In this document: piece after piece, positions 5,752 through 63,762 of the stretch
Layout of the letters: every line of letters starts with the position of its first letter
Numbering within the stretch: position 1 is the first letter of the stretch
The notes under the pieces: generated by a model
What the model was told of the DNA's origin: nothing
The model's input: only the letters and a program-made list of their open reading frames with translations
The model's database searches: none
Program-made: the position numbers and the translations under genes
Source: a virus
Length of the DNA stretch: 64,000 nucleotides
Strand: one strand, 5' to 3'
IMG/VR virus record: IMGVR_UViG_3300033149_001571
Location: 1-64,000 of that record

Positions 5752-7232
5752 GCGTTCCAAATCCATGCCCCACGACGTAGGGCGAGCCGGTCCCTCTTAC
5801 GCGCCTGAGCCTCTTCGGCTTCGGCTTCGCGTTCTGAATAGTCTACCCCGCGGGGGAAGTGTCGCGAGACGATCTCCGTAGCTTCTTCGACGCTCGCGGG
5901 ACGCACGCGGAGAAGCTCCATACGCGCCGCCTGTAGCGCCTCGGAGTGTGCGTCCACCTTCTCCCCCGAGAAGACCACGCGATCGAATCTCCGCGCGTCT
6001 CGCTTGAATCGCCATAGGCGATCCGCTACCGCCTTCGGACTCGCGAGCGTGAAGAACTTAGGGGGGCGCTTCGTTCGCTCGTACTCTTCATCCCACGCCC
6101 ACGCGAACCACTCCCACGCGCTTACGCCTTCGCCGCGAAGGTGCTTCGCCGCCTCCGCGATTGAATCGACGCGCTTCCCGGGGCCGCCGTTGTACCGGCG
6201 TCCAGTGTGGCGCAGATAGACCGCGCCCCACGCGAGCGCCATAGCGTCCGCGAGCGCCTTCGCTTCATCCTCCCGGGGTAGCAGCGGCGGGGGCGGGTGC
6301 TCGTACCGTGGACGCGGTGAGACGCTCTCCACGACCGCCCACACCTCCGGGGACGGAGACCACGCGCCGGGAACCACGAGCCGATCACGACCGAAGAGAC
6401 ACCCGGCGCGGACTCCATCCGGCGCGGAGCCGTCCCTGTGGAATCGGAGCGATCGCCCCTCTTCCGGGGCCCGCTTCGTCTGGCGCTCTGAGAGCCTCTC
6501 TAAGAGCCTCGAAGCGGTGCCCGGGTCCGCTGGTACCTCTGGAATGCTAGGAACGCTCTCCGGCTCTACTGGGTGCCCTCCCGCCGCTGTATCACTCTCA
6601 GGGTCGGAGACGCCCGGGGGGCGGAGCCCCTCGGGCGATTCTATGGATTCTTCCGGCTCTAAAGAATCGGTGCCAGATTCTTTATTTTTATTTCTTGCTC
6701 TCTCTCTTGCTCTTGCTCTTGGCTTCGAGGGGGCATCAGAACCGGTTTCGTACCCCCTTCGATGCCCCTTCGATGCCCCTTCGATGGGGCTTCGATGCCC
6801 CTTCGATGGGGCTTCCGCTTCGATGTTCCATGGCTCCCCGTAGCGATCGAAGAAGCGCAGGTAGAGCGCACTCGATTTAAACGGTGCGATCTGTTTTACG
6901 ACCCACGGCCGGCGGCGGTCTCCATCCTTGAGAGTCTCCCCCACCTGAAAGCGACCCATCTCGCGGATCCACACAAGCGAAGCACCTTCGTCACGCTCTA
7001 GAAATCCGATCCCTTCGAGCACCTCTAACGCCTTCGAGATCTTGGATTCATCCAGCCCGGTGTCCGTGCTCGCATACGGTAGCGGGAGCCGGTAGAGCCC
7101 GGTGGCTTTCGCGTGGGGGCACGAGATCAGATATAGCGCCACGAATCCCACGATGGGCCCGGCGTCTCGCATCGCGCGGCCGGTCTCACCCACCCAGAAC
7201 TCCGGGGCGATCTTCGAGTAGTCTCGGCTCAC
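5748..7232 (-). CDS. Winged-helix replication initiator-like protein
   Basis: Encodes about 494 residues. The N-terminal ~115 residues (RDYSKIAPEFW ... SKISKALEVLEGIGFLERDE) look like a winged-helix domain of the kind found in phage replisome organisers. A low-complexity Ser/Pro/Arg linker (~130-260) is encoded over the phased CTTCGATG repeats and an AT-rich tract. The C-terminal ~200 residues are helical (WEWFAWAWDEEYERT) and may bind the helicase. Start is GTG at 7232 in a GTGA overlap with the upstream RHH-like gene. A longer open frame to 7373 exists but its first 47 codons lie inside that gene. Position immediately before the DnaB-like helicase and the repeats inside the gene suggest an O-like initiator. 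The family assignment is inference. Confidence 0.8.
   Translation of the reverse strand: MSRDYSKIAPEFWVGETGRAMRDAGPIVGFVALYLISCPHAKATGLYRLPLPYASTDTGLDESKISKALEVLEGIGFLERDEGASLVWIREMGRFQVGETLKDGDRRRPWVVKQIAPFKSSALYLRFFDRYGEPWNIEAEAPSKGHRSPIEGASKGHRRGYETGSDAPSKPRARARERARNKNKESGTDSLEPEESIESPEGLRPPGVSDPESDTAAGGHPVEPESVPSIPEVPADPGTASRLLERLSERQTKRAPEEGRSLRFHRDGSAPDGVRAGCLFGRDRLVVPGAWSPSPEVWAVVESVSPRPRYEHPPPPLLPREDEAKALADAMALAWGAVYLRHTGRRYNGGPGKRVDSIAEAAKHLRGEGVSAWEWFAWAWDEEYERTKRPPKFFTLASPKAVADRLWRFKRDARRFDRVVFSGEKVDAHSEALQAARMELLRVRPASVEEATEIVSRHFPRGVDYSEREAEAEEAQARKRDRLALRRGAWIWNA
6675..6697. other. AT-rich tract beside the phased repeats (possible unwinding element)
   Basis: A run of mostly A and T (agattctttatttttattt core) interrupts otherwise GC-rich coding DNA, about 60 bases from the CTTCGATG array and followed by a pyrimidine-only CTCTCTCTTGCTCTTGCTCTT stretch on the plus strand. 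It encodes the KNKNR-type linker of the initiator-like protein. In lambda-type origins an easily melted AT-rich tract lies beside the initiator-binding iterons. Assignment as an unwinding element is inferred from that analogy. Confidence 0.5.
6757..6825. repeat. Six CTTCGATG iterons, five phased at 11 bp; candidate replication origin
   Basis: CTTCGATG starts at 6757, 6768, 6779, 6790, 6801 and 6818, giving spacings of 11, 11, 11, 11 and 17 bases. Two copies sit in inverted repeats GCCCC-TTCGAT-GGGGC (6775-6790 and 6797-6812). Because 11 is not a multiple of 3, the repeat passes through all reading frames of the host gene, so the conservation is at DNA level rather than protein level. One repeat per helical turn places every site on the same DNA face. 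The array lies inside the initiator-like gene, as oriLambda lies inside gene O. Origin function is inferred. Confidence 0.7.
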
Positions 7233-7588: not shown

Positions 7589-9034
7589 TCAAGTGTCGGA
7601 CCATAGGTCACGCACCACGACGCAGTTGAACCCCTCGCGGCGCATCGCTCGGATTCTCTCCTTCGCGTGAGCGTGTAGCCACCGGTTACCCTTGTCCCCG
7701 ATATCGTAGACGATGAATCGATTCTTTCCGTCTGTACGTCGGGAGCCTCTCCCTACTTGCTGGAGAGTCTCGATTACCGATTTCCCTCCGGCCGCGTTGA
7801 TCACGGTGCGAAGCTCCGGGACGTTCACACCTTCCGCGAAGACCTTAGTAGAGATTATAAAATCGATCCGCGAGTCTTCGAGGCGAGCTAGAGCGGCGGC
7901 GCGTTGCTCCGTGTCTCGGTTCCCGTCCACCACTTCCACGTTGATACCTGCCGCGCGTGCTAGGTCTCGAAGCGTCCGCGCGTGCTCGATACGACGGACG
8001 AAGACCATACCCGGGCTCTCTCCGTCCGCGAGTGTCTTCCGCATCGCTTCCACCACGAGACGATTCCTAGGCTTAGAAGACACGATTAACTCTTCGTAGA
8101 CCTTCCGGTAATCTCCTTCGCTCTCTGGGCTCGCTCTCTGCTCTAGGGGGAGAATCCGTATCTCCGGCTCTGAGAGCATCCCGGCGTCTATCAACTGCCG
8201 CGCGGAGATCTCGTACTCGATAGGACCGATCGCCGCTACCGCCATAAGCGAGCGGCGGTCCCCTCGATCGAAGGGAGTACCGGAAAGACCTACGCGGTAG
8301 GTCGCTCGGGAAAACTCCCGGATGGTCTCGTAGAAGCTACGAGCCGGGGCCGTGTGGCACTCGTCTACGATCACCCCGTCGATTGAGCGGGCTAGGTCTG
8401 CGAAGCGCTGGGAGCCTCTCGCGCGGTGGAGTGTCTGTAGGGTGGAGCACGTGAGCCGCTCGCCTACCTCCCATCGTCCAGCGCCCACGAATCCCGCCGG
8501 CGGTTCGTCGGTCGCGAGCGTCTCCCACCGCTTCGCTACGTCGTCGGCTAGGTTCCCGCGGTGGACGCAGAATAGCCACCGCCCCGGGATCGCCTTCGCT
8601 ATCGCTACCGCTACTCTCCCCTTCCCTCCGCCGGTCGGGATCTTGATTACCCCTCGCCCGTACAGGCTCGCGTTCACGGTAGCCGCTACGATCGCGTCCA
8701 CCTGATACGGCCTCATGGTTAGGGGCTCCGCTCTGAGTCTCTCCGCGAGCGCCTCCGGGTCCGCTAGGGTCTTCGTCCTATGGTCGGAGATAGCCAGCCC
8801 CATGTTCTGAGACTGAGCCCCCTTAGCCACGAGAGGGATTAGACCTACCGGGAGCGTCCCTCTCTTGCGCGAGAATAGACGGATCCGGGTAGGGCCCCCG
8901 TAGTAGCCCATCCGCTCGCGTCGCTTCGCTTTCGTATCCTCGAAGCTCACGAATTCATCTAGCCACGAGAGCGCCTCTTCACTCCCCGTCACTCGTGCTT
9001 CGCTCCCGTTCTCGATTACGATTCTAAGATTCAT
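7589..9034 (-). CDS. Superfamily 2 DNA/RNA helicase (UvsW/DEAD-like)
   Basis: A 481-residue SF2 helicase. After an N-terminal extension of ~105 residues, the motor reads QxxR-like RPYQVDAI, motif I PTGGGKG (133-139), motif II DECH (224-227), motif III SGTP, then the second lobe with GMVFVRRIEHA, STKVFAEGVNVPEL and motif VI QQVGRGSRR. In motif I the residue after the Lys is Gly instead of the usual Ser/Thr. Related phage enzymes remodel recombination or stalled-fork intermediates. ATG has AGAGGG about 6 bases upstream and overlaps the methyltransferase stop by 11 bases. It is the last gene before the 7489-7523 terminator. Confidence 0.92.
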   Translation of the reverse strand: MNLRIVIENGSEARVTGSEEALSWLDEFVSFEDTKAKRRERMGYYGGPTRIRLFSRKRGTLPVGLIPLVAKGAQSQNMGLAISDHRTKTLADPEALAERLRAEPLTMRPYQVDAIVAATVNASLYGRGVIKIPTGGGKGRVAVAIAKAIPGRWLFCVHRGNLADDVAKRWETLATDEPPAGFVGAGRWEVGERLTCSTLQTLHRARGSQRFADLARSIDGVIVDECHTAPARSFYETIREFSRATYRVGLSGTPFDRGDRRSLMAVAAIGPIEYEISARQLIDAGMLSEPEIRILPLEQRASPESEGDYRKVYEELIVSSKPRNRLVVEAMRKTLADGESPGMVFVRRIEHARTLRDLARAAGINVEVVDGNRDTEQRAAALARLEDSRIDFIISTKVFAEGVNVPELRTVINAAGGKSVIETLQQVGRGSRRTDGKNRFIVYDIGDKGNRWLHAHAKERIRAMRREGFNCVVVRDLWSDT

Positions 9035-9554
9035 CGCGACCCTCTACTTGATTCCCCCACACGTCCCACCCGGGACGCTCGCGCCGCGCGAAGATCTCCG
9101 CGCGTGGACCGGGGGAGACCCCCTCGATTAGCGCGTAGCTCTCCTCCGGCTTCCTAGAGTGTTCGGTCCGCTTCACGAGCCCGCCGCCCACGAGACTAGA
9201 CCACGAGCGGGATTCCGAAGGGAGCCGGCCGCGGATACCGAAGAGCATAATTTCATGCTGTCCGCGGAGGTACTGGCCTAGACCGATTGACGTCTTCGCC
9301 CATACCGCGTTCGTCACGTACCGGAAGCCTAGGGCCTTCATGACGAAGAGCCCATCTTCTAGGAAATTATTCGTGACCCATAGCCATAGGTGGCACCCTT
9401 CCGCGTGGGGCTGGAAGAGCGGAGAGCGGTAGATCGTGTCCACGATCTGAGGGGTCTTCATGATCGGGTAGTGACGGTCCGCGCCGCGCTTGTACTTACC
9501 GCCCCCGCGCTCGTACCAAGGGGGGTCCGCTAAGATGCACCGGTACCCGCTCAC
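9024..9554 (-). CDS. MT-A70 family adenine methyltransferase (first copy)
   Basis: 176 residues with the hallmark DPPW motif at 10-13 (CILADPPWYERGGG), the WLWVTNNFL strand and the terminal GWDVWGNQ block typical of the phage branch of MT-A70 N6-adenine methyltransferases. It would methylate adenine in DNA, probably to protect the genome from host restriction. It starts with GTG in a GTGA overlap with the sigma-like gene. A second, different MT-A70 gene lies at 60893-61501, so the phage encodes two. The target sequence cannot be read from the protein. Confidence 0.9.
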   Translation of the reverse strand: MSGYRCILADPPWYERGGGKYKRGADRHYPIMKTPQIVDTIYRSPLFQPHAEGCHLWLWVTNNFLEDGLFVMKALGFRYVTNAVWAKTSIGLGQYLRGQHEIMLFGIRGRLPSESRSWSSLVGGGLVKRTEHSRKPEESYALIEGVSPGPRAEIFARRERPGWDVWGNQVEGRDES

Positions 9555-10114
9555 GCCGGGGCCCCGATCTGCTCACGGATAACGGCGCGAGCCTTGCGGC
9601 ACCTGTAGCGCCAGTGATCGTAGCCGCGGCGCTCCGGGTCGGAGTCCGCAAGCTCCCGCGGTCCGCCTCGAAGGATCCACGAGAGGTTCTCGGAGAACGC
9701 CTCCGCCACCACGGCGTCCACGTCTCCTAGAGCTTCGAGCGCTCTCGCGAGCCTAGCGAGCTTAGAGCGCGTCTCTAGCTGGTGTCCGGGGTCGAAGTAC
9801 CGCGGAGCCTCTCGGCTCGCTACGGCCGTCTCTGCCGCCTCTCCGCGTACGCTCTTCGCTTGCTCCGTGTAGGCGTACTCGCGATTCTTCGGAGTGTGTA
9901 CGGGCTGGATTGTCTGGTAGCTCCAATTGAGTAGCCCGCGGCGGATCGCCCCCTTCACATAGGCGCGGCGCGTCCCCTTCTCGGGGTCATAGTGTGGGAT
10001 CGCTTCGAGAGCGATCCGCCACGCTTCCTGGTTCACGTCTTCCGGGATGAGGCTAGGCCACGCGCGAGCGTGGTCCCGGGCTTCGTAGGCTACGATCTGA
10101 GAGATATCGTCCAT
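9551..10114 (-). CDS. Sigma-70-like RNA polymerase sigma factor
   Basis: 187 residues. Residues ~22-72 resemble sigma-70 region 2 running into region 3: IPEDVNQEAWRIALEAIPHYDP, then AYVKGAIRRGLLNWSYQ, then a VHTPKN segment like the VR+P+ motif that starts region 3. The C-terminal half (LARALEALGDVDAVVAEAF ... RCRKARAVIREQIG) sits where a region 4-like helix-turn-helix would be, but the match is weak. ATG has AAGGGGG about 6 bases before it. If active, it would redirect host RNA polymerase to phage promoters such as the repeated T6/CGATT elements. The alternative is another helical DNA-binding protein. Confidence 0.65.
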   Translation of the reverse strand: MDDISQIVAYEARDHARAWPSLIPEDVNQEAWRIALEAIPHYDPEKGTRRAYVKGAIRRGLLNWSYQTIQPVHTPKNREYAYTEQAKSVRGEAAETAVASREAPRYFDPGHQLETRSKLARLARALEALGDVDAVVAEAFSENLSWILRGGPRELADSDPERRGYDHWRYRCRKARAVIREQIGAPA

Positions 10115-10124
10115 GGTGTCCCCC

Positions 10125-10970
10125 TTAGTCCTCGTCTTCGACTAGAAGCGCGTGAGCCATCGTAGCTTGCGTCTGAGAGAGCCGGGCGCGTAGCTCTGGG
10201 AGCGCGCGAGACAGGATCCCCTCGTAGGTCTCCACCTTGCTCTGTGCCTTCGTGAGCGCGTCCACCTTGCTCTGGATCGCGCGCTTGCCCGCGTCTGCTA
10301 GTCCCTTCTTCTGGGTAGCGATCACGGTATCGATCTCGTCTACCACCGCGTCTAGGACGCCTTCCAGAACCCCCTCCGTCTTCATGGCGGGGATATCGGA
10401 GTAGAGCTTGTGGCCCGTCACCTCGCGGAACACGGTAGCCCACGAGCGCCACACGTCCACGCTACCAGCGGGCACGAAGTAGAAGCCTCCGCCGGGGCGA
10501 ATGCTCACCGCGTCCAGACGATGAAGAAGAAGCCGCGGGAGCCATAGCGAGAGATCTTCCGCTACGTAGGTCTCTCGGTAGTGGTCGAAGCCCGCGAGCA
10601 CACGAGCCGCGTCCGGGTGCTCCGGGTCCGATACCATCGGGGAGCCGCTCTCGCGGTCGTACCACGCTCGGAGACCCTCCGAGAATCGTAGGTCGCGCGT
10701 CTCCGTCTCGCCTACCGTAACGACCACATAACCCCCGCGGGGGTGAGCCTCTACGCGCCGGCTTCGGCCCGTCGCGAGAGCGTCCACCGCCCGGCGGATC
10801 GCTCGCTTCGGGCTCGGGTCTTTCGGCAGAATTGAAGCGTCCAGCCCGTGACGCTTCGCCGCTTCTCGGAGAGCTTCTACGCTCACCTCCCCGGAGAGAC
10901 GCCAGTAGGCGAAGACGCCGGTGACGCCGGGGATATCTTGATTCGTTCCCGTGATCCTGAATTCTCGCAT
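10125..10970 (-). CDS. DUF6744-like protein of the MoxR/VWA module
   Basis: About 281 residues. The N-terminal section (FRITGTNQDIPGVTGVFAYWRLSGEVSVEALREAAKRHGL) and a later 'GGGFYFVP' region resemble the phage DUF6744 family as I remember it. The C-terminal third (AVVDEIDTVIATQKK ... ELRARLSQTQATM) is a predicted long coiled helix. ATG at 10970 follows AAAGGAAATC. The frame stays open upstream through the 16-bp repeat array, but that extension is repeat-encoded and has no ribosome site. It is the third gene after the MoxR-like ATPase and the metallopeptidase/VWA gene, suggesting a shared job. That job is unknown. Confidence 0.75.
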   Translation of the reverse strand: MREFRITGTNQDIPGVTGVFAYWRLSGEVSVEALREAAKRHGLDASILPKDPSPKRAIRRAVDALATGRSRRVEAHPRGGYVVVTVGETETRDLRFSEGLRAWYDRESGSPMVSDPEHPDAARVLAGFDHYRETYVAEDLSLWLPRLLLHRLDAVSIRPGGGFYFVPAGSVDVWRSWATVFREVTGHKLYSDIPAMKTEGVLEGVLDAVVDEIDTVIATQKKGLADAGKRAIQSKVDALTKAQSKVETYEGILSRALPELRARLSQTQATMAHALLVEDED

Positions 10971-10982
10971 GTTCGATTTCCT

Positions 10983-11078
10983 TTCGTGTGTTCGTTGGTT
11001 CGTGTGTTCGTTGGTTCGTGTGTTCGTTGGTTCGTGTGTTCGTTGGTTCGTGTGTTCGTTGGTTCGTGTGTTCGTTAG
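10983..11078. repeat. Six tandem 16-bp repeats between the VWA and DUF6744-like genes
   Basis: The unit TTCGTGTGTTCGTTGG (plus strand) is repeated six times without error except the last two bases of the final unit, which merge with the VWA stop codon. Each unit is itself two similar 8-mers (TTCGTGTG and TTCGTTGG). The array fills nearly all of the gap between the VWA stop (11075) and the ribosome site of the next gene. It may be a protein-binding array, an mRNA element, or simple slippage expansion. Length polymorphism between relatives would be expected. Confidence 0.9.
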
Positions 11079-12445
11079 CGGGGGATCTTGATCTCCTGCC
11101 CCCATGAGACCGGAGCCTTACAGTCCGGAGTGATCAGCCAAATCGTGGGGACGCTGGGAGCCTTGCTCGGAGCCGGGCCCCCTCCGTCCGTCGCCACGAT
11201 TACGAGATCCGGGCGCGTCTTACCCTTCGCGCTCTCGGCCTTCTCGAAGATGGGGACGAAGTTAGTACCGCCCCCGCCCGTGAGCATATCGCGGACCATG
11301 GCGAGCGCGGCGGAGCGTGCTCGGGGGAGCTTCACGGGCTCGCCTTGCACCTTCGTATCACACGCGAGCACGTACACCTCCGCGGCGGCTCCGGCGACGG
11401 CTAGAAGGTTCCCCACGGCGTGAGCGTGGTCCTCTGGGCTCATGCTGCCGGAGGTGTCCACGGCGTACCACACGCGGGCCTTCTCGCTCTCGTAGGTGGC
11501 GCGGATAGGGTTCCGCGGGTGCGAACCCATGCACGCTTGCCGGCGGTGGGGGCGGCGGTAGGTCTTACGACCGCCGGCGGCGCGGCGTACCACGGCTCCG
11601 GTCTTGCGTCGAAGGACGGCGGCCCACGAAGTGACGGGGGGAGCCAGACGGCCGTCCGCCCACACGGAGAGAGAGCCCGCGAGACCGCCGGCGGCCTTAT
11701 CGGCTGCCGATTGCTTCGCGATCTCCCGAGCGCAAGCGTCCCGGGCGGATTCCATCTCGCTGTCCGTCACCTCCGAGATCTTCGAGCCGTGAGCGTCTGT
11801 AGAGCCCGTATCCGGCTCGCCTTCCATCTTCTCGCCCCCTGCACCCTCGCCACACTCTCCCGAGCACGGTTGCGGCTCTCCGTCGCTCTTACGGGGCTCC
11901 CCGTTCTCGTCGGTGGCGGTAGGGTCTTCGGGGAGGAGATCGTAGATCTCCGCGGCGGACATTTTCGGATCGTGGGGGATCTTCACCTGCGAGCCGTCCG
12001 CCCCGGTGAACGTGGTCGCGGGGTACTTCGCGGAGCCCGTGTCCGGGAAGATCCCACACGAAGGAAGCTCCCACCCGGCGGCCACCAGCATCCCGTTGAT
12101 TCGGAGATCGCAAGCGATGTTCCAGCGGCGCGGGCAACGGTCGCCGCGGTGGTGTACGTCCTTAAGCATGATGTGGAGACACTCGTGGGCGAGCACTCCG
12201 GCGATCACCTCCACACCTTCGGCGCGAGCGAACTTGATCGCGCACCGCGGATCGAAGAAGAGGCGATTACCAGCGTTAACGCCGGCGGTGCCGCATGGGG
12301 CCCACACACATCCGGCCTTCACGAGAATCGGCGCGATGTAGGCTCCGCGGACGCGGAAGATTATACGAGCCTCGCTCATGATCTCACGGGCCTCTGCGAG
12401 GAGATCGGGAGCGAAGGTAGAAGGGGCGGTAGCGGGGGCGGTCAT
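11075..12445 (-). CDS. Metallopeptidase-like and VWA domain protein (DUF2201 type)
   Basis: 456 residues. The N-terminal domain has a zinc-peptidase-like HECLH (87-91) in VIAGVLAHECLHIML, followed by HHRGDRC and WNIACDLRIN, as in the putative metallopeptidase domain of DUF2201 proteins. An acidic linker (~180-240) leads to a C-terminal von Willebrand A domain with the metal-ion site DTSGSMS (~331-337) and a later GGGGTNF (third MIDAS-type segment). Such proteins pair with MoxR-type AAA+ ATPases as chaperone or metal-insertion systems. The partner gene is immediately upstream. It has its own promoter/leader copy. Whether the peptidase site is active is unknown. Confidence 0.88.
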   Translation of the reverse strand: MTAPATAPSTFAPDLLAEAREIMSEARIIFRVRGAYIAPILVKAGCVWAPCGTAGVNAGNRLFFDPRCAIKFARAEGVEVIAGVLAHECLHIMLKDVHHRGDRCPRRWNIACDLRINGMLVAAGWELPSCGIFPDTGSAKYPATTFTGADGSQVKIPHDPKMSAAEIYDLLPEDPTATDENGEPRKSDGEPQPCSGECGEGAGGEKMEGEPDTGSTDAHGSKISEVTDSEMESARDACAREIAKQSAADKAAGGLAGSLSVWADGRLAPPVTSWAAVLRRKTGAVVRRAAGGRKTYRRPHRRQACMGSHPRNPIRATYESEKARVWYAVDTSGSMSPEDHAHAVGNLLAVAGAAAEVYVLACDTKVQGEPVKLPRARSAALAMVRDMLTGGGGTNFVPIFEKAESAKGKTRPDLVIVATDGGGPAPSKAPSVPTIWLITPDCKAPVSWGQEIKIPR

Positions 12446-12462
12446 CGTTCGGTCTTCCTTGG

Positions 12463-12533
12463 GTCGGGCGGGAGTAGTGGCGGCCCGACTCTGGGAGATT
12501 AGATCAATCGTGGCGCGAGTACAACTAAAAAAC
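12463..12533 (-). promoter_or_regulatory. Promoter and leader hairpin of the VWA gene (conserved copy B)
   Basis: Minus strand order: T6 run (12527-12532), AGTTGTACTCG, a CGATTG box about 16 bases after the run, then a leader hairpin GTCGGGC-N13-GCCCGAC (12463-12489) and an AAGGAAGACC ribosome site before ATG 12445. Hairpin arms, the CGCCAC start of the loop and the ribosome-site region match the copies before the MoxR-like and DUF6011-like genes. Promoter activity is inferred; the hairpin is directly visible. Confidence 0.65.
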
Positions 12534-12566
12534 GGGGAGCGATGCGCGCCACACGCACCGCCCCCC
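12527..12566 (-). terminator. Rho-independent terminator after the MoxR-like gene
   Basis: Minus-strand 13-bp stem (12554-12566 with 12534-12546, two G-T wobbles), 7-base loop TGTGGCG, then GTTTTTTAG. It lies just after the MoxR-like stop codon (12574) and directly before promoter copy B, insulating the VWA gene from read-through. The heptaloop is the same as in the terminator at 7489-7523. Confidence 0.85.
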
Positions 12567-12573
12567 GGACCGA

Positions 12574-13833
12574 CTACTTAGATTTATTCGCTTTAGCCTT
12601 CGCCTTCGCCTTCTTCTCCGCCATGAGCACGGAGAAGAGCTTCTCCACGACGGGAGCGGCTTCCGTGATCTTATCGGGGCCGAACCCCAGCCCGTCCTTC
12701 GCGACGCTTCGAGACATCTCCCGGGCGTACTCGCGGACGAAATCCGCTCCGCCGTAGGGGCTCTCGATCACCCGGTCCGCGAGAGTCCACCACGCACGGG
12801 CGAGATCCTCCCGATCGTCTCCCGTGTAGCTGGCGAGGTATGTCACCGTCGCCCCGAGCACCGCGTGGGTCTTGTCGAATCGCTCCGTGGGCTCGTAGCT
12901 CTCGGGGTCCATGAGAACGCCGCGGGGGGCGGGAAGATCCTGATCTTGCCAGAAGGAAGCGAAGCGGGCGGCGAGACCCTCCGGGAGAGCGCAGTAAGCT
13001 ACGAACTCCATTTGACGGGGGGAGAGTCCGTGAATGATCCCGCCGGCGAGAGCGTGGATAAGATTCGTCCACGAGCGGACGGACGGCCAGCGGTAATCGT
13101 CGCCGTCGCTCATGGCGTGCGCGTCCGCCTCGAAGCGGTCTAGGTACTCTCCGACGATGGTAACCGCGGCGGAGTACGCCTCCGGCCACGCGGCGAGTAC
13201 CCGCGCCTCGATCTCCGCCACGTCTTCGCGAACGATCTCCCGCTGTAGGGAAGAGCGCCGCCAGTGTGTCTTCATGCTGCCCACGGAGGGCGGGACCCAG
13301 GGCACGTGTAGGAAGCGGTTCGCGGTAGGGGCCGCGAGCGTGTTCGCGTCCGCGGCACACTCGGGGGGGTTACCGATCGCGAAGATGCGGACGTGTCCGG
13401 CCACCTTCGTGTCACCGGCGAGACGCTCCGTAAGAAGCGTAAGCGCGGCGGCTTGCTTATGCTCTGCGACGGAGCCGAACTCATCTAGCCCGATGCAAGC
13501 GGACGCGGCGGCGTTCGCCTCTGCGAAGACCGGGCTGGGGAGCTTCGTCATAGCCGTGCGGGTCTTGTTAGGGACCCCGTAGCCGGCGATCTCTTCGGCG
13601 TCATGCTGAGCGAGGCTCATGGTAAGGGAGAGCCCGAAGAGCTTCGAGCCGATCTCCCGGGTGATACTGCTCTTCGCAGTACCGGGCTCTCCCCACACTG
13701 CGAAGGGGATACCCCACACGGTATCGGCACCGGGAGCGGTGTACGCCGGGGTGGTAAGGAAGCTACGGAGAACTTCGAGAACCTCGTCAGAGGTGAGGGA
13801 GTGGGAGAAGCAGAGGGTAGCGGTGTCGGTCAT
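12574..13833 (-). CDS. MoxR-type AAA+ ATPase
   Basis: 419 residues. Walker A GEPGTAKSS (48-56), Walker B IGLDEFGS (D117/E118), sensor-like IFAIGNPPE and an ANRF arginine-finger-like stretch identify an AAA+ ATPase of the MoxR/RavA group. These ring ATPases work with VWA-domain partners to remodel proteins or insert metals, and the next gene downstream encodes such a partner. The C-terminus is Lys/Ala-rich (KKAKAKAKANKSK). ATG follows AAGGAAAGACC and the conserved leader hairpin. The gene is monocistronic by the visible signals: own promoter copy and own terminator. The phage role of this pair is not established to my knowledge. Confidence 0.9.
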   Translation of the reverse strand: MTDTATLCFSHSLTSDEVLEVLRSFLTTPAYTAPGADTVWGIPFAVWGEPGTAKSSITREIGSKLFGLSLTMSLAQHDAEEIAGYGVPNKTRTAMTKLPSPVFAEANAAASACIGLDEFGSVAEHKQAAALTLLTERLAGDTKVAGHVRIFAIGNPPECAADANTLAAPTANRFLHVPWVPPSVGSMKTHWRRSSLQREIVREDVAEIEARVLAAWPEAYSAAVTIVGEYLDRFEADAHAMSDGDDYRWPSVRSWTNLIHALAGGIIHGLSPRQMEFVAYCALPEGLAARFASFWQDQDLPAPRGVLMDPESYEPTERFDKTHAVLGATVTYLASYTGDDREDLARAWWTLADRVIESPYGGADFVREYAREMSRSVAKDGLGFGPDKITEAAPVVEKLFSVLMAEKKAKAKAKANKSK

Positions 13834-13851
13834 CGTTCGGTCTTTCCTTGG

Positions 13852-13930
13852 GTCGGGCGGGGTTTGTGGCGGCCCGACACGGAGAACCTACGAGAAGAAT
13901 CGCCGGCTGGCAAGCTATAAAACGAAAAAA
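13852..13930 (-). promoter_or_regulatory. Promoter and leader hairpin of the MoxR-like gene (conserved copy A)
   Basis: On the minus strand a T6 run (13925-13930) is flanked on both sides by the 10-mer CGTTTTATAG. A CGATTC box follows 22 bases after the run, then GTAGGTTCTCCGTG, then the hairpin GTCGGGC-N13-GCCCGAC (13852-13878) and an AAGGAAAGA ribosome site. The block from GTAGGTTCTC to the ribosome site is nearly identical to the plus-strand copy before 62683. Transcription start is inferred to lie between the CGATTC box and the hairpin. Confidence 0.7.
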
Positions 13931-13957
13931 CTATAAAACGCCGTTTGGGTGGCGTTT
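13925..13957 (-). terminator. Terminator-like hairpin ending the long late operon
   Basis: Minus-strand perfect 7-bp stem AAACGCC/GGCGTTT with an 8-base loop (13936-13957), followed by TATAG and a T6 run. It is weaker than the other two terminators but stands in the same place: after the last gene of an upstream operon and directly before a promoter copy. It would close the structural operon that ends with the small gene at 14064-14312. Confidence 0.55.
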
Positions 13958-14344: not shown

Positions 14345-17300
14345 TCATTCGTCTACCCGCTTCGGGCTAACCGTCACCCCTACCGTCTTATCCGGCTTCG
14401 CGCTACCGGGGAGAATCGTGTAGGGCGCGTCGTTCTCTAGAGACTTGATCGACGCGGCCACGGATCGCGGCTTCTCGGATATGTCTTCGACGTCTAGCAA
14501 GACGGCATCATAGCCGGAGCGTCTAGACACTCCCGTACCTAGGTGCGCCGCCCCTAGATTATCGAGAGTCGCGTAGCTCACCACGCGGCGATTCTCTCCC
14601 GCTAGGATATATTCGTTCTCTCCGTTTAGACCAATCGAGAACGGAGACGCGCGGCGGTCCGCGAGAATCTCCCCTACGTCCGCCTCTCGCGTGGTGATCA
14701 CGGATCGGGATCGGCCCTCTATGCTTACGCTACCGGAGAAAGCGTCCGCGGAGAACGGGCTATCAGACCACGAACACGCGGCGTCTTGTTTAATCACGAA
14801 CTTGCGAGCGGACTTGTTTTTAATCTCGTTCGCTAGGTCTCCGAAGTGAAGCCCGCGGTAGGCTCGTACCTTCGTCACGCCTTGCGCCTTGAGAACGGCT
14901 TGCGTGTGCCCATAGAACGCCGCCGCCACGTCTTCGAGGTTCCCTAGGTACTTACCGCTGTAGGAACTCTTAATCTCTCCAGTGCCGAAATCTACCTCGT
15001 AACTGCCAAATTTACGCTTACCGGTGAGTCTAACTCGCGCGCTTACGTTGGAGTCTTGCGATAGCCCTAACCGGTGCGCCATCCAGTGGAAGATATCCGC
15101 GGCCCCCCCGGTGCTGCTACCGGACCAACTGCTAGAGGCCTTCTCCATGATCTCGGAGTAGAAATCCGGGTAGGTCTTCATGAAGACCGTACGGCTCTCG
15201 GATGCGGCCTTCTTCCGAGCCGTGTCACTTAGCAGGCTCGCGCGGTCGAATCCTAGATCCGTGCTCGGGGACGCGAGCGGGGACTTAAGGTCTTCCATCG
15301 CCTTCGTGCTCTGCACGTAGCTTCGGAGCACCTTCTCCTTCTGCTCGTCTGGGATCTTGTCCCAGACCTTCGGAGAGAACGGAGCACGGCCGCCCTTAAG
15401 AATCTCCTCGATCTCTTTCCGCGCCGCGGCGGCTCGCGCCTTCCGTTCGGCGGCTTCCTTCTTCGCCTTCTTCGCCGCGGCGGCCTTCGCCTTCTTCTCT
15501 TCCTTGATCTTCTTTACGAACTCCGCGCGCCGGCTCTTAATGTTGTCGCGGCGTTTAATCAACTTGTCACGAAGAGCCGAACGCTCTACGAGATCCTCGG
15601 GACCTAGCAAGTCCACCACCTTCGTAATCTGAGCGTCCGTGATACTCGCGACCCGATCGATTCCCGCTACCACCGCCTCCGCGTCCACCCCTTTGTAGAC
15701 GTCTGCCGCCGCGGGGTTCTTCGCGGAGTCTAGGAAGTTATCTAGCTCCGTCACCGTGTCCCCGAAGGCCCCTCCCTTCGCGTCTCCGCCCCCGCGGTAG
15801 CGTAGCGCCCCCTTCATGTCCCCACGGATGATCTTCCCGTTCGCGAGCTTCCTGAGCTTGCTAGGGCCCGTCCAGTTAGCGAGCCACGCATCCACCACGA
15901 AGCCGTCCGCTACTTGCTTCGCTAGGTCTCCCTTAATCGCGCTCGCGTTGATCTCGGTGCCTTCTCGGAAGTCGTAGACGGCCCTCTTCGCGTTGTCGGA
16001 TAGCGTGACGTCTGCCGCGTCAATGTCCGCGATCCGGTATAGCTCTCGCGTCAGCACCTCGTTCGCCACGTGGTCCGCGCTCTGCCGCTCGAAGCCGGTT
16101 AGACCCATGTCCCCGTAATCCTTCTCCGGTATTCCGAGAGACTCCGGGGTGGTCTTCGCCTTCTTCGCGGCCTTCTCGATATCCTCTAGGCTCTTCTCCG
16201 GGATTACGGCCTTCGTCTTCTTCGCGGCCTTCTTCTTCGTAGCCTTCTTCGCGAGCTTCCCGGGGATGTTCGCGTACTTCGAGTCCCGGAGCTTCCGTAG
16301 GTACTCGCGGCGATTCAGAAGCGTCTTAAGAAGCTCTTCGCCTTCCTTCGCATCGATCGGACCCACCTTCTTCACGAGAGCCTTAATCGTGGCCTCGTCG
16401 ATATCGAGAACGCGATCGATTCCGTGAGCTATGGATTTGTCCGTGACGTACTTAGAGAAGACCGAAGACGCTTGCGGGGCTATCTTCGGATCTAGAAGCG
16501 TGTCTAGCTCTTTTACTTCGTCACCCCATACCCCGGGGATCAGATCGTTCTTCTTCCCTCCCTGCGCGCGGTAGCGGAGCGCCCCGCCCGTGTCTAGCCG
16601 GTACGCCTTCGAGCCCTTAACCAGGAGGTTATCGTACCCGAGACCCACGACGTCCCAATTGGCGAGCCATGCGTCTACCACGAACTCTTCCGCGATGCCT
16701 TCGAGCTTCCCCGATTTGAGCGCCGCCGCGTCTTCCCCTACCCCGTCGATTATCTTCGAGGCGATCGACGGCTTTCCCTTCCGGGTAGCTAGAACCACGT
16801 CCGGGATATCGACACCCGCGGCCCGGTATAGCTGAGCGGCTAGGACTTCGTTACGCGCTACGTCCTCCACGCTTGGAGTCTTCACGTACCACCGCTCGCC
16901 CGTGGTGCTCTCGTACATGCCCCCGTCATTACTGCCCCCCTGAGCCCCTACCTTCTTCCACTTCGCCGTATCGTCCACGTCTACGACGTCCGCGGGGATC
17001 TTCGTAGGCTCTTCCGGCTTCTTCTTCGCGGCCTTCTTCTTCGTGGCCTTCTTCTTCGTAGCCTTCTTCTTCGCTACGGCCTTCGCTACGTCTGCCGCGT
17101 CCGGGGCGATTGCGGTAGCTACCTTCTTCGCCTTAATCGCGCTCACGTCGTCGATGTACTTCGCGAGCGCTGGTACGCTCTTCGCTTGCTTCGTCTTCGC
17201 CGCGTGCTTCGTGAGCCAATCCGCTAGATCGTCTCTCGTGACCACGAGGGACTTCCCTACCTTCTTCGCGGGGAGCTTCCCGGCGTAGACCGCATTATTA

Positions 17301-47159: not shown

Positions 47160-47972
47160 TTAAGTCCGTAGGGAAGAGATCCGGGGACGGACCGCGTTCG
47201 TATCCCGCTCCGTCTGGTAAGAGCCATCGCGGTCCGGGACTCCGATAGGCGGCGGCTCCGTCCGCGCGCCTTCCTGATCCGTTAGCGTAATCACGTACTG
47301 GAAATTCTCCGCGTCGTAGTAGGGGAGACTCGCGGGGGTGAAGCGCCCGGGGACCGAATTAGGATCGGAGGGGCACCGCTCGCGCCGCTCCACCTCGTAG
47401 AAGAATTCGACGTCTGGATCTCGCGTCCGGTCGTCGATGTACCCGAACAATTCGCGCCCGCTCACCTGAGCCGGAGAAATCTCCGTTAAGACGATATCTC
47501 CGCTTGCTCGCATCCCGGAGAACGAAGACTCCCAATCGATCGCGGCGGTGCTCGATACGAGCACGGGAAACAACTCCACCCGGCGAAGCTCTTCCGCCCG
47601 TTGCTTCCGGTCCCGCTTGCGCCACACGAGCCACACGCGATAGCCCCGGAGCCCTAGATCGTGGACGATACCCCGCGCCCCATCTACCGCCGTCTGTAGG
47701 CACACCCCGAGAGAGCCCACGAGATCCCCGTCTGTGTTCGGTACGTTCTCGGGACCCGGGCCGCATATCCCGGGGGCGGGTACGGGCTGCCCCGTCTGCG
47801 GGTCTATGACGGTCGTACAGTCGCCGCCTGCACAATCGGAGGGTACCCGCGCGGAGCATCCCTCGAAGCGGTTAGGGGCCGGCGCGCACGGATCGCGCCT
47901 AGGCTTCGAGCACGAACACGAGCCCGAACACGAGCCCGAACACGAGCCCGAACACGATCCGCACCCGCTCAA
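47160..47972 (-). CDS. Neck-region protein with Cys-Gly-Ser repeat N-terminus
   Basis: 270 residues. The first ~20 residues are a tandem GSCS repeat (seven Cys), with further paired Cys to residue ~50 and ~70. The rest has a strand-rich structural domain (LRGYRVWLVWRKRDRKQRAEELRRVELFPVLVSSTAAIDWESSFSGMRASGDIVLTEI ... NFQYVITLTDQ) likely to be a head-tail connector component. The start is TTG, sharing bases with the stop of the tiny upstream gene (TTGA). The Cys array could bind metal or crosslink. Confidence 0.7.
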   Translation of the reverse strand: MSGCGSCSGSCSGSCSGSCSCSKPRRDPCAPAPNRFEGCSARVPSDCAGGDCTTVIDPQTGQPVPAPGICGPGPENVPNTDGDLVGSLGVCLQTAVDGARGIVHDLGLRGYRVWLVWRKRDRKQRAEELRRVELFPVLVSSTAAIDWESSFSGMRASGDIVLTEISPAQVSGRELFGYIDDRTRDPDVEFFYEVERRERCPSDPNSVPGRFTPASLPYYDAENFQYVITLTDQEGARTEPPPIGVPDRDGSYQTERDTNAVRPRISSLRT

Positions 47973-60892: not shown

Positions 60893-61501
60893 TCACCACG
60901 TCCCGGGAATCGCCGTCTGCCGCGGAGCGTACGGAGTGTCCGGGCCTATCTCATTCCCCCACGACGTCCACCCGTGGCGCTTCACCCTCGCGAACATATC
61001 GAGACGGGGCCGGTCGTCGCCTACGAGACGCTCTAGACGGTCGTAAAAGAGATCCGGTTTCTGCGAGTGTTTACCTACGGGCGCTCTAAGATACTGCGAT
61101 TCTTTTAGAGAATGAATCGGGAAAGGCCGCCCCGTCTTTACGGTGGTAGCCACTAGAACCAATTCGGCCATCGGCTTAACGAAAGTCGGCTGTACGCCCT
61201 TCCCCTCGATAATCCCTCCGTCGCTCCGGCGGGTCTTTAGCCATATCCACGCCACCCCGCGGTAGGTAAGGCCCCACGCTCTGATTATGTCGATCGCATA
61301 ATCGAGACGCGGACACGTAGCCCATAGGAAGAGCGCGGAGCGATCTGACATAACAGAGCGCACGGGGAGCGCCGCTAGTTCTTCCTGGGTCATGACCCCG
61401 TAGTGATTCCTCGCGCTGTTAGTGTGGCCCGGCTTCGCGCTGTACCACCACGGGGGATCCGCTACTACGACGTCGAAGGGTCCGGGCGGGAGAGGGTTCA
61501 C
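60893..61501 (-). CDS. MT-A70 family adenine methyltransferase (second copy)
   Basis: About 202 residues. The DPPW motif (VVVADPPWWYSAK, ~14) plus MTQEELAALPV, LFLWATCPRLDYAIDIIRAWGLTYRGVAWIWLKT and the terminal HGWTSWGNE block identify an MT-A70 N6-adenine methyltransferase. It differs clearly from the 9024-9554 copy, so it is not a recent duplicate. GTG at 61501 makes a GTGA overlap with the gene before. A longer open frame to 61570 falls within that gene. It is in the first part of the long operon, away from the other copy. Confidence 0.9.
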   Translation of the reverse strand: MNPLPPGPFDVVVADPPWWYSAKPGHTNSARNHYGVMTQEELAALPVRSVMSDRSALFLWATCPRLDYAIDIIRAWGLTYRGVAWIWLKTRRSDGGIIEGKGVQPTFVKPMAELVLVATTVKTGRPFPIHSLKESQYLRAPVGKHSQKPDLFYDRLERLVGDDRPRLDMFARVKRHGWTSWGNEIGPDTPYAPRQTAIPGTW

Positions 61502-61761
61502 GCCTTCTCCCCCTCTTCGAGCACTCGCCGGGCCACGTCCGCTTTTAATATTCGGACGATATGGGGCCACTCCCGCGAGATTATATCCGGGACGTCTTCG
61601 GCCTTCTCCACGTACCCGACCGCGAACACGGAGCCCCCTCCGTACCTTGCATCGCCGGAGCGATTTACCACCTTCACCCGTACGAGATCGTCCACCGCGA
61701 GTAGATCTATCTCTACCCCGAGCGCTAGACTAATCACTTTGTCTTCCTCCGGCTTCGGCAT
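61498..61761 (-). CDS. Small hypothetical protein
   Basis: 87 residues: a beta-rich start (KVISLALGVEIDLLAVDDLVRVKVVNRSGDARYGGGSVFAVGYVEK) and a helical end (REWPHIVRILKADVARRVLEEGE). Unknown family. ATG overlaps the zinc-ribbon gene by 32 bases and its stop overlaps the methyltransferase start, so it belongs to the same translational chain. Confidence 0.65.
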   Translation of the reverse strand: MPKPEEDKVISLALGVEIDLLAVDDLVRVKVVNRSGDARYGGGSVFAVGYVEKAEDVPDIISREWPHIVRILKADVARRVLEEGEKA

Positions 61762-62580: not shown

Positions 62581-62664
62581 GCGTTTTTTAGTTTTTTAGG
62601 TTTGCGCTTATTCGATTCTTCGGGTAGGTTCTCTGTGTCGGGCCGCCACGAACCCCCGCCCGGC
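62581..62664 (+). promoter_or_regulatory. Promoter and leader hairpin of the DUF6011-like gene (conserved copy C)
   Basis: Plus-strand T6 run repeated (GTTTTTTAGTTTTTTAGG), a CGATTC box, GGTAGGTTCTCTGTG, then the leader hairpin GTCGGGC-N14-GCCCGGC (62637-62664) and an AGAAGGAAAGACC ribosome site. The stretch from GTAGGTTCTC to the ribosome site is nearly identical to that before the minus-strand MoxR-like gene. No plus-strand gene lies upstream for 20 kb, so here the T-run cannot serve as a terminator tail. Confidence 0.7.
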
Positions 62665-62682
62665 AGAAGGAAAGACCAGACC

Positions 62683-63762
62683 ATGTGCTACGAAGACGCC
62701 CCCGCTACCCGCCTCCTCGCCACTCACTGCACCATGTGTAGCCGCCCCCTCTTGGACGCTCAATCCGTCGAAGCGGGCATGGGCCCGATCTGCCGTAAGA
62801 AGTACGGCGCTCCGGCGCATATCGACGAAGAGAGCCGCAAGCGCGCCAATAAGCTAATCCACGAAGCCGCGGTGACCGAAGACCCCGCACGCATCCCGGG
62901 GATCGTTGCGGAGCTTTGCCTGTTGGAGTGTGACGTAGCCGCGGAGAAGCTCGCGGAGCGTTGCGGCGCTATCCGAGTCTCCCAGACGGAGGCCGGCTTC
63001 TTCACGGCCGTGAGCCCCTACGATCCGGGCTTCGTCGCCGCTTCCCGCTCGCTCCCCGGCCGCCGGTGGCTCCGCGAGGAGAAGGCGAACCGGTTCGCTC
63101 TCGAAGCCATCCCCGGCTTCGTCTCCGCCGCCCGTGAGGCGTACGGAGAGCGCACGATCATCCGTATCGATCGCGGAGACCGCTCCCCGATCTGGACGGA
63201 CTACGCCGGATTCTCGGGCTTCGCCTTCGAGAAGGCGGAGAAGCCCTTCTCCGCGGCGGCGTCGAAGGTCCCCGTCCACGTCCCCGCGAAGAAGATCGCG
63301 AAGCTCACGGGCTCCACGGAGTACGACCCCGCGGACGCTACGAGCCGCTCCGTAGCCGGTGCCGCTCTCGTGGGTGCGCTCGTATCCGGCGGCTTCGAGA
63401 AGGTGACGGACGCCCGCAAGCTCCCCCGCGGCTGCCGCGAAGAGGTGTACGAGATGCCCGTCTACCAGCGCCCCGGGAAGCCGGAGTGTGGTCACTTCGT
63501 ACAGGTGTTCTCTAGCGTCGTGGGTGACGGCTTCCGCTCGTGTGGGAAGGACGCGATCCGCGTCAAGAGCTTCGTCCGCTTCTGGTCTAAGAAGTCCGGA
63601 TCATGGGAGCTTCGCACGAAGACCGTGGGCCGTGGCCGCCGCGTCCACCGTACCGGGACGATCGAAGAGATCACCAATCGCACGGTGGAGCGCGCTCGGG
63701 ACTGCTACCGCGCCGCGATGGAAGACTACAAGGCGAACCTGGCTAAGCTGGTAAGCGAGTAG
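62683..63762 (+). CDS. DUF6011-like zinc protein
   Basis: 359 residues. The N-terminal CTMCSRPLLDAQSVEAGMGPICRKKYG (~16-42) is the treble-clef-like zinc motif of DUF6011 proteins. Residues ~90-155 (ERCGAIRVSQTEAGFFTAVSPYDPGFVAASRSLPGRRWLREEKANRFAL) resemble the small PYDP-FV-A-R-LPGRRW domain also seen beside SNF2/HARP-type helicases. The rest is unassigned with an Arg/Lys-rich end. ATG at 62683 follows AGAAGGAAAG and the conserved leader. The frame upstream to 62602 runs through the leader hairpin and is rejected. It shares its control element with the MoxR/VWA genes. Confidence 0.85.
   Translation: MCYEDAPATRLLATHCTMCSRPLLDAQSVEAGMGPICRKKYGAPAHIDEESRKRANKLIHEAAVTEDPARIPGIVAELCLLECDVAAEKLAERCGAIRVSQTEAGFFTAVSPYDPGFVAASRSLPGRRWLREEKANRFALEAIPGFVSAAREAYGERTIIRIDRGDRSPIWTDYAGFSGFAFEKAEKPFSAAASKVPVHVPAKKIAKLTGSTEYDPADATSRSVAGAALVGALVSGGFEKVTDARKLPRGCREEVYEMPVYQRPGKPECGHFVQVFSSVVGDGFRSCGKDAIRVKSFVRFWSKKSGSWELRTKTVGRGRRVHRTGTIEEITNRTVERARDCYRAAMEDYKANLAKLVSE

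What the first reader, a model, noticed from the sequence alone, without database searches (positions are those of the whole stretch)
10125..13833. MoxR ATPase, metallopeptidase/VWA and DUF6744-like module in a lytic phage
The first two genes have their own promoter/leader copy and terminator each, and the third follows behind a repeat array. MoxR/VWA pairs are cellular protein-remodelling systems. Their strong, separate control here suggests a major role in infection (host protein takeover, virion maturation or anti-defence).
Basis: partly seen in the sequence, partly recalled or inferred. Interest (0 to 1): 0.7.

Follow-up and report, generated by a model that had tools for sequence, protein, structure and literature searches.

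The report
Phage MoxR–VWA–DUF6744 protein-remodelling module
This phage carries a three-gene, ATP-driven protein-handling module whose first two parts are widespread in phages, and whose unexplained third gene turns out to travel with such pairs in viruses and bacteria, so it is probably a real third component.

Summary
The observation largely holds. On the minus strand lie a divergent MoxR-like AAA+ ATPase (13833-12574), a metallopeptidase-VWA protein (12445-11075) and a DUF6744 protein (10970-10125). MoxR and VWA each have a near-identical promoter-hairpin-ribosome-site cassette; an unreported third copy precedes a DUF6011 gene (62683, + strand). Only MoxR has its own terminator; VWA reads on into DUF6744.

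The MoxR/metallopeptidase-VWA pair is already known: it is N4 gp24/gp25, core genes of N4-like phages, and was described in jumbo phages in 2021. MoxR lay upstream in 68 of 69 testable viral loci.

The new part is DUF6744. Searched independently, it sits beside MoxR and/or VWA genes in 26 of 29 bacterial loci, in 9 of 12 testable non-seed sites from two phylum samples, and in four of the viruses carrying it; two further virus lineages hold such a pair elsewhere in the genome. Usually the partners are a different MoxR-VWA lineage. One integrative element repeats this phage's combination.

Most likely this is a three-part remodelling module expressed with the replication genes; its client is unknown. 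The protease may be altered: the third zinc histidine, invariant in 68 relatives, is aspartate here. New variant of a known kind.

The parts
12574..13833 (-). MoxR-like AAA+ ATPase, 419 aa (N4 gp24 type, phrog_1297)
   Evidence: Walker A GEPGTAKS, Walker B LDE, GNP sensor; 88 bits with the N4-type profile, no match with the bp-type profile
11075..12445 (-). DUF2201_N metallopeptidase-like domain + DUF2201 VWA domain, 456 aa (N4 gp25 type, phrog_1314)
   Evidence: HECLH, NxAxD, MIDAS DxSxS/T/D intact; third zinc His replaced by Asp96; model m24dbf254e913 matches VWA folds including Rea1/MDN1 MIDAS
10125..10970 (-). DUF6744 protein, 281 aa (ATG at 10970 preferred over 11105: the Pfam match begins at 10976 and a GGAAA site lies just upstream)
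   Evidence: 50 bits, RPGGGFYF signature; model m80dafcf15367 pLDDT 84
13834..13907 (-). promoter-leader cassette of MoxR: TTGCCA-17-TAGGTT-6-GTCGGGCCGCCAC hairpin-AAGGAAAG-ATG
12446..12518 (-). promoter-leader cassette of VWA: TTGTAC-17-TAATCT-6-GTCGGGCCGCCAC hairpin-AAGGAAG-ATG
62606..62682 (+). third copy of the same cassette: TTGCGC-17-TAGGTT-6-GTCGGGCCGCCAC..., before a DUF6011 gene
62683..63762 (+). 359-aa DUF6011 zinc-finger protein sharing the cassette
   Evidence: PF19474 7.1e-11
12533..12567 (-). intrinsic terminator after MoxR, 16-pair stem then TTTTTT
13936..13957 (-). terminator-like stem and T-tract upstream of the MoxR promoter
10983..11076 (-). 16-bp tandem array, 5.9 perfect copies, filling the gap between the VWA stop and the DUF6744 ribosome site
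9551..10114 (-). sigma-70 region 2-like protein, next gene in the same run
   Evidence: PF04542 1.7e-5
9024..9554 (-). MT-A70 DNA methyltransferase
   Evidence: PF05063 1.9e-18
7589..9034 (-). UvsW-like helicase, last gene before a terminator at 7523-7495

Best explanation
The locus encodes a three-part ATP-driven protein-remodelling module. Shown by sequence: a MoxR-like AAA+ ATPase, its VWA partner with an intact MIDAS and a zincin-like N-terminal domain, and a DUF6744 protein whose family repeatedly accompanies MoxR-VWA pairs. Inferred: the ATPase forms a hexameric ring; the VWA protein docks on it and uses the MIDAS metal to grip an acidic residue of the client, as in Rea1/Midasin; DUF6744 is the third subunit, acting as client adaptor or regulator, which is why it can be paired with two separate MoxR-VWA lineages. 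MoxR and VWA are driven by strong host-type promoters followed by a shared 5' hairpin leader, and VWA reads through into DUF6744 and the helicase/methyltransferase genes, so the module is probably made with the replication genes, before the structural genes. The most likely client is a replication or transcription complex of the phage or host. The peptidase step is doubtful here because the third zinc histidine is replaced.
For: MoxR lies upstream of VWA on the same strand in 68 of 69 testable viral loci and in LIT1, D505, nACB1 and inbricus. DUF6744 used alone as query hit Moorella phage MTATph1 beside a MoxR-VWA pair. Adjacent trio in three IMG/VR contigs; same genome about 7 kb apart in G082; same genome about 15 kb apart in haloviruses. 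Bacterial DUF6744 loci: 26 of 29 have MoxR and/or VWA alongside, 22 both. Phylum samples, non-seed testable sites: 7 of 10 Bacillota, 2 of 2 Actinomycetota; against about 2% expected by chance (own estimate: 2-4 MoxR genes per genome, 20-kb window, about 4 Mb). L151 repeats the N4-type pair plus DUF6744 in one strand and order. MIDAS residues invariant in 55 aligned proteins. Replication context: window, LIT1, D505 and nACB1 beside helicase and DNA polymerase, MTATph1 beside RNR, Rad52 and UDG. N4 genes 24 and 25 are core and middle-transcribed (PMC4193335). Cassette evidence.
Against: No physical interaction was tested. DUF6744 was absent from all 80 N4-type viral records and 5 further phages searched, so N4-type pairs normally work without it and the window combination is rare. 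The window DUF6744 is very divergent (at most 23% identity to any tree row, branch length 5.7). DUF6744 occurs without a nearby pair in L101-L103, L155, L156 and a broken copy in L152. The client is unknown, and replication context is correlation only. The MoxR protein alone scores under the Pfam cut-offs.
Confidence: 0.55

Rival explanations
1. Virion-assembly chaperone: MoxR-VWA remodels or clips structural proteins during head or tail maturation, as proposed for jumbo phages and for the tail of Acidianus two-tailed virus.
For: Iyer et al. 2021 propose exactly this for the metallopeptidase-VWA pair in group 2.2 jumbo phages (PMC7824862); ATV p618/p892 precedent cited there and in PMC7911831. 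In roseophage RPP1 the gp24/gp25 homologues lie near a second structural module (PMC4193335). In the window the module is next to a giant MuF-like virion protein.
Against: A terminator and new promoter separate it from the structural run; neighbours here and in the annotated relatives are mostly replication genes; N4 gp24/gp25 are middle genes. The third zinc His is missing, which weakens the processing idea here.
Confidence: 0.2
2. Conflict module: defence, superinfection exclusion or counter-defence, related to MoxR-VWA ternary conflict systems of cells.
For: The partners of DUF6744 elsewhere carry bpMoxR, named for ternary conflict systems (PMC7159879). In three Paenibacillus species the DUF6744-MoxR-VWA operon is followed by a GmrSD_N restriction-type protein (PADLOC NsnA/restriction models). 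Trio loci often carry RadC, and one lies in an integrative element with an integrase.
Against: None of the window proteins matches any PADLOC model. No effector or nuclease gene lies in the window operon. Pervasive presence and core status in Schitoviridae fit a basic function better than an optional conflict gene.
Confidence: 0.2
3. DUF6744 is a hitchhiker in mobile-element gene blocks; only the MoxR-VWA pair is a functional unit here.
For: Most N4-type pairs lack it; the window copy is behind a 94-bp repeat array and has no promoter of its own.
Against: Adjacency in 9 of 12 unbiased testable sites and 26 of 29 scanned loci in two bacterial phyla plus phages, in several gene orders, is far above chance and rearranged rather than simply inherited.
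Confidence: 0.1

Closest known systems
N4-like (Schitoviridae) gp24 AAA ATPase and gp25 vWFA protein (phrog_1297, phrog_1314)
   Same: Same two protein families, same order (ATPase upstream of VWA), beside replication genes (PMC2784036, PMC4193335)
   Different: This is a contractile-tailed phage, about 25% identical at best; has DUF6744 as third gene; third zinc His replaced by Asp; each gene has a private promoter-leader cassette
Jumbo-phage group 2.2 MoxR-vWA pair with N-terminal metallopeptidase (Iyer et al. 2021, PMC7824862)
   Same: Same domain architecture of the pair
   Different: No DUF6744 mentioned in the passage read; proposed there for virion assembly
bpMoxR + VWA + DUF6744 loci (Moorella phage MTATph1, IMG/VR L091-L093, Paenibacillus and other Bacillota, Actinomycetota)
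   Same: Same third component and, in L091-L093, the same gene order MoxR-VWA-DUF6744
   Different: The MoxR and VWA belong to a different lineage (bpMoxR, VWA_2/CoxE type, no metallopeptidase domain)
MoxR-vWA ternary conflict systems (VMAP, iSTAND, FtsH, beta-propeller; Kaur et al. 2020, PMC7159879)
   Same: MoxR chaperone + VWA co-chaperone + a third conserved protein
   Different: None of the four described third components is present; DUF6744 is not among them in the text read
Integrative element L151 (Bacillota genome G363)
   Same: N4-type MoxR, HExxH-VWA and DUF6744 on one strand in the same order
   Different: Small ORFs and a RadC gene lie between; DUF6744 there groups with Bacillota copies, not with the window

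Membership tests
AAA+ ATPase, MoxR-like (phrog_1297) | Walker A, Walker B and sensor-1 residues | tested here: met
   GEPGTAKS, LDE, GNP; invariant across six aligned phage proteins
AAA+ ATPase, MoxR-like (phrog_1297) | Profile match | tested here: inconclusive
   phrog_1297 4.7e-22, N4-type profile 88 bits; Pfam AAA 20.4 against 21.2 and AAA_5 16.3 against 22, both just under cut-off
AAA+ ATPase, MoxR-like (phrog_1297) | MoxR-clade helix-2 insert and lid arrangement; ring assembly; ATPase activity | not tested
   No model of this protein was made
DUF2201 metallopeptidase-VWA proteins (N4 gp25 type) | PF13203 + PF09967 domains | tested here: met
   84.5 and 61.4 bits, over cut-off; phrog_1314 175 bits
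DUF2201 metallopeptidase-VWA proteins (N4 gp25 type) | MIDAS DxSxS...T...D | tested here: met
   D330, S332, S334, T394, D420, invariant in 55 rows
Active zinc metallopeptidase of this family | HExxHxxxxH zinc site | tested here: not met
   HExxH present, but third His is Asp96; His in 68 of 68 viral relatives and 53 of 55 aligned rows. So no claim of peptidase activity is made
DUF6744 (PF20529) | Profile over cut-off and RPxGGxxF signature | tested here: met
   50 bits against 27; R158 P159 G161 G162 F165 invariant in 26 rows
DUF6744 (PF20529) | Fold shared with family members | tested here: met
   Model pLDDT 84; Foldseek best viral hits include HVTV-1 gp25 at 1.6e-12, itself a DUF6744 protein by Pfam
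bpMoxR / beta-propeller ternary systems | bpMoxR match and beta-propeller components | tested here: not met
   No bpMoxR hit for the window ATPase, no match with the bp-type MoxR profile
Known anti-phage defence systems (PADLOC) | Match to a PADLOC model | tested here: not met
   0 families for all three window proteins
Three-part MoxR-VWA-DUF6744 complex | Physical interaction of the three proteins | not testable with these tools
   Needs co-purification or complex prediction

The most novel reading that the evidence does not exclude
[quoted passage not shown] cells link it to a GmrSD-type restriction protein and phages use it in early takeover.
Probability: 0.35. Interest if true: 0.75.

Novelty: new variant of a known kind. 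Interest (0 to 1): 0.52.

Why it matters
MoxR-VWA pairs are core genes of a large phage family yet their client is unknown. A conserved third protein, of no known function until now, gives a concrete handle for finding that client, and ties phage modules to bacterial loci that look like conflict systems. It also shows that a PHROGs label (HNH endonuclease for phrog_1314), which is also the product name of such proteins in several annotated phage records, is probably wrong.

Tried and rejected
Close relatives of the whole phage: none by megablast of window 1-25000 in 50,697 phage records, and single-protein scans of viral contigs gave one weak VWA relative only. 'HNH endonuclease' label of phrog_1314: rejected, because both Pfam domains are metallopeptidase and VWA and no HNH domain was found. 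DUF6744 in N4-type phages: searched in 85 records, not found (some are fragments and the 80-record searches had no positive control). DUF6744 function from fold: no PDB match under E 0.001; VIA-align hits are only three-helix bundles (residues 197-281), within the range expected for helical bundles, so the BAG-domain, ribosome-recycling-factor and CorA resemblances were not used. The metallopeptidase domain was not covered by fold hits, since the VWA domain filled the list. First genome scan with two DUF6744 sequences found nothing because its patterns were poor; the six-sequence alignment solved this. Common origin of the window and L151 combinations: trees place them apart, but the window branches are very long, so two origins are suggested, not proven. 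L070 is the one testable viral locus without a MoxR gene upstream; not resolved.

Full report
Identity of the source. The window is 64,000 of the 68,356 bases of an IMG/VR virus record, 62% GC; its first 25 kb has no near relative in 50,697 phage records. It is a tailed phage with portal, terminase, capsid, baseplate wedge and a tail-sheath hint, and with DNA polymerase, primase, DnaB-like helicase and a helicase-loader-like gene at the left end. No integrase was seen among the proteins scanned, which fits but does not prove a lytic life.

The three genes. Reading on the minus strand: a 419-aa AAA+ ATPase (13833-12574), a 456-aa metallopeptidase-VWA protein (12445-11075) and a DUF6744 protein (start preferred at 10970, stop at 10125). 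The ATPase is divergent: it falls just under Pfam cut-offs but matches phrog_1297 and keeps its nucleotide-binding motifs. The VWA protein matches both DUF2201 models well, with MIDAS residues D330, S332, S334, T394 and D420 all present. Its HECLH is real, but the third zinc histidine of the family motif HExxHxxxxH, found in 68 of 68 viral relatives, is aspartate here. Asp can bind zinc in other peptidases (general knowledge), so activity may be changed rather than lost.

Expression signals. A cassette of TTGnnn, 17 nt, TAnnnT, 6 nt, then a hairpin GTCGGGC...GCCCGAC and AAGGAAAGACC before ATG stands in front of MoxR and VWA. The strict promoter pattern occurs five times in 64 kb on both strands; three of these are exactly 6 nt before the 13-base leader core. 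The third lies at about 62606-62682 on the other strand, before a DUF6011 gene. The hairpin at the presumed 5' end may protect the transcript (inference). A strong terminator separates MoxR from VWA, and a terminator-like stem lies upstream of MoxR; there is none after VWA. VWA therefore reads through a perfect 16-bp x 5.9 array into DUF6744, a sigma-like protein, an MT-A70 methyltransferase and a UvsW-like helicase, up to a terminator at 7523-7495.

The pair is known and widespread. Relatives of the VWA protein occur in 57 phage records, all under 60% identity; the ones read are Schitoviridae or similar phages with the ATPase just upstream. A viral-contig scan returned over 500 relatives; among the best 80, MoxR is upstream on the same strand in 68 of the 69 with enough sequence. 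N4 genes 24 and 25 are AAA and vWFA proteins (PMC2784036), belong to the 14 core genes of N4-like phages and are middle genes (PMC4193335). Iyer et al. described the MoxR plus metallopeptidase-vWA pair in jumbo phages and proposed a role in virion assembly (PMC7824862).

DUF6744 is the new part. Used alone as query, it gave one weak hit in the phage collection, Moorella phage MTATph1. That protein is a strong DUF6744 (206 bits) lying 0.7 kb from a MoxR-VWA pair of another lineage, bpMoxR with a VWA_CoxE/VWA_2 domain and no metallopeptidase. Three IMG/VR contigs have MoxR-VWA-DUF6744 side by side in the window's order. A fourth (G082) has the pair about 7 kb away. Haloviruses HVTV-1 and HCTV-1 hold DUF6744 and, about 15 kb away, an AAA and VWA pair (the AAA/vWA gene proximity in HVTV-1 is noted in PMC7911831).

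In bacteria, 29 DUF6744 loci were found, some of them duplicates; 22 have both MoxR and VWA beside it, four have one of the two (mostly at contig ends), and three near-copies have none. An even sample of 398 Bacillota genomes gave 13 sites; leaving out the seed and two tiny contigs, 7 of 10 have the pair within a few kb. In 396 Actinomycetota, both testable non-seed sites do. The chance rate is about 2% per site (own estimate), so 9 of 12 cannot be chance.

One of these, L151, is an integrative element (integrase; RecJ- and RadC-type genes) carrying the N4-type MoxR and HExxH-VWA with DUF6744, which is the window's own combination. Trees do not join the window and L151 copies, suggesting two separate pairings, though the window branches are long. 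DUF6744 was not found in the 80 viral records of N4-type pairs or in five further phages, so the combination is rare.

Structure. The DUF6744 model is confident (pLDDT 84). It has an N-terminal alpha/beta part and a C-terminal three-helix bundle. It matches other viral DUF6744-like models, HVTV-1 gp25 first, and nothing significant in the PDB. The VWA model matches VWA folds including Rea1/MDN1 MIDAS domains, and the MoxR profile hits Midasin first among solved structures, which supports the AAA-plus-MIDAS analogy.

Function. Most likely a three-part remodelling module whose MoxR ring and VWA MIDAS act on a client chosen or controlled by DUF6744. Its place in the replication run here, beside helicase and polymerase genes in three of the four Schitoviridae-type phages read and beside RNR, Rad52 and UDG in MTATph1, and the middle timing of N4 gp24/gp25, favour a client in replication, transcription or host takeover over virion assembly. 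The GmrSD_N restriction-type protein after the trio in Paenibacillus keeps a conflict role open. Interaction, client and timing in this phage are inferred, not shown.

Novelty. The pair alone is already known. The DUF6744 link was not found in the library: no paper holds the term DUF6744, and the four ternary classes of Kaur et al. do not include it. Hence: new variant of a known kind.

Noticed in passing
window 14345-20263, - strand: 1972-aa protein beside the portal gene: weak Mu gpF-like N-terminus, HTH_17 domain, HipA-like kinase fragments and, by eye, an ADP-ribosyltransferase-like C-terminus; looks like a multi-domain virion-carried MuF protein, directly upstream of the MoxR module.
   Followed up: partly
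window 62606-63762, + strand: Third copy of the promoter-leader cassette in front of a DUF6011 zinc-finger gene, so MoxR, VWA and this gene look co-regulated.
   Followed up: partly
phrog_1314; RefSeq LIT1 gp35, inbricus gp69, Vibrio phage D505 and others: Family annotated 'HNH endonuclease' is really a DUF2201 metallopeptidase-VWA protein; the label appears in several annotated phage records.
   Followed up: yes
window 9551-10114, - strand: Sigma-70 region 2-like protein just downstream of DUF6744; could read phage promoters.
   Followed up: no
window 9024-9554 and 60893-61570, - strand; L007 3860-5509, - strand: Two MT-A70 methyltransferases and an N6_N4_Mtase DNA methylase in one phage.
   Followed up: no
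L007 3248-3682, - strand: 144-aa protein with a DnaA C-terminal helix-turn-helix (PF08299, 1.1e-7), possibly an origin-binding protein.
   Followed up: no
window 47907-47957 and 6754-6815: Other short tandem arrays (12 bp x 4.2; 11 bp x 5), the first near a gene start, like the array before DUF6744.
   Followed up: no
L109, L111, L112, L113, L114, L116, L145: In three Paenibacillus species the DUF6744-MoxR-VWA operon is followed by a GmrSD_N restriction-type protein: a candidate defence locus.
   Followed up: partly
L096, L097, L106, L110, L150, L151, L153, L157: A RadC-family gene recurs near DUF6744-MoxR-VWA loci.
   Followed up: partly
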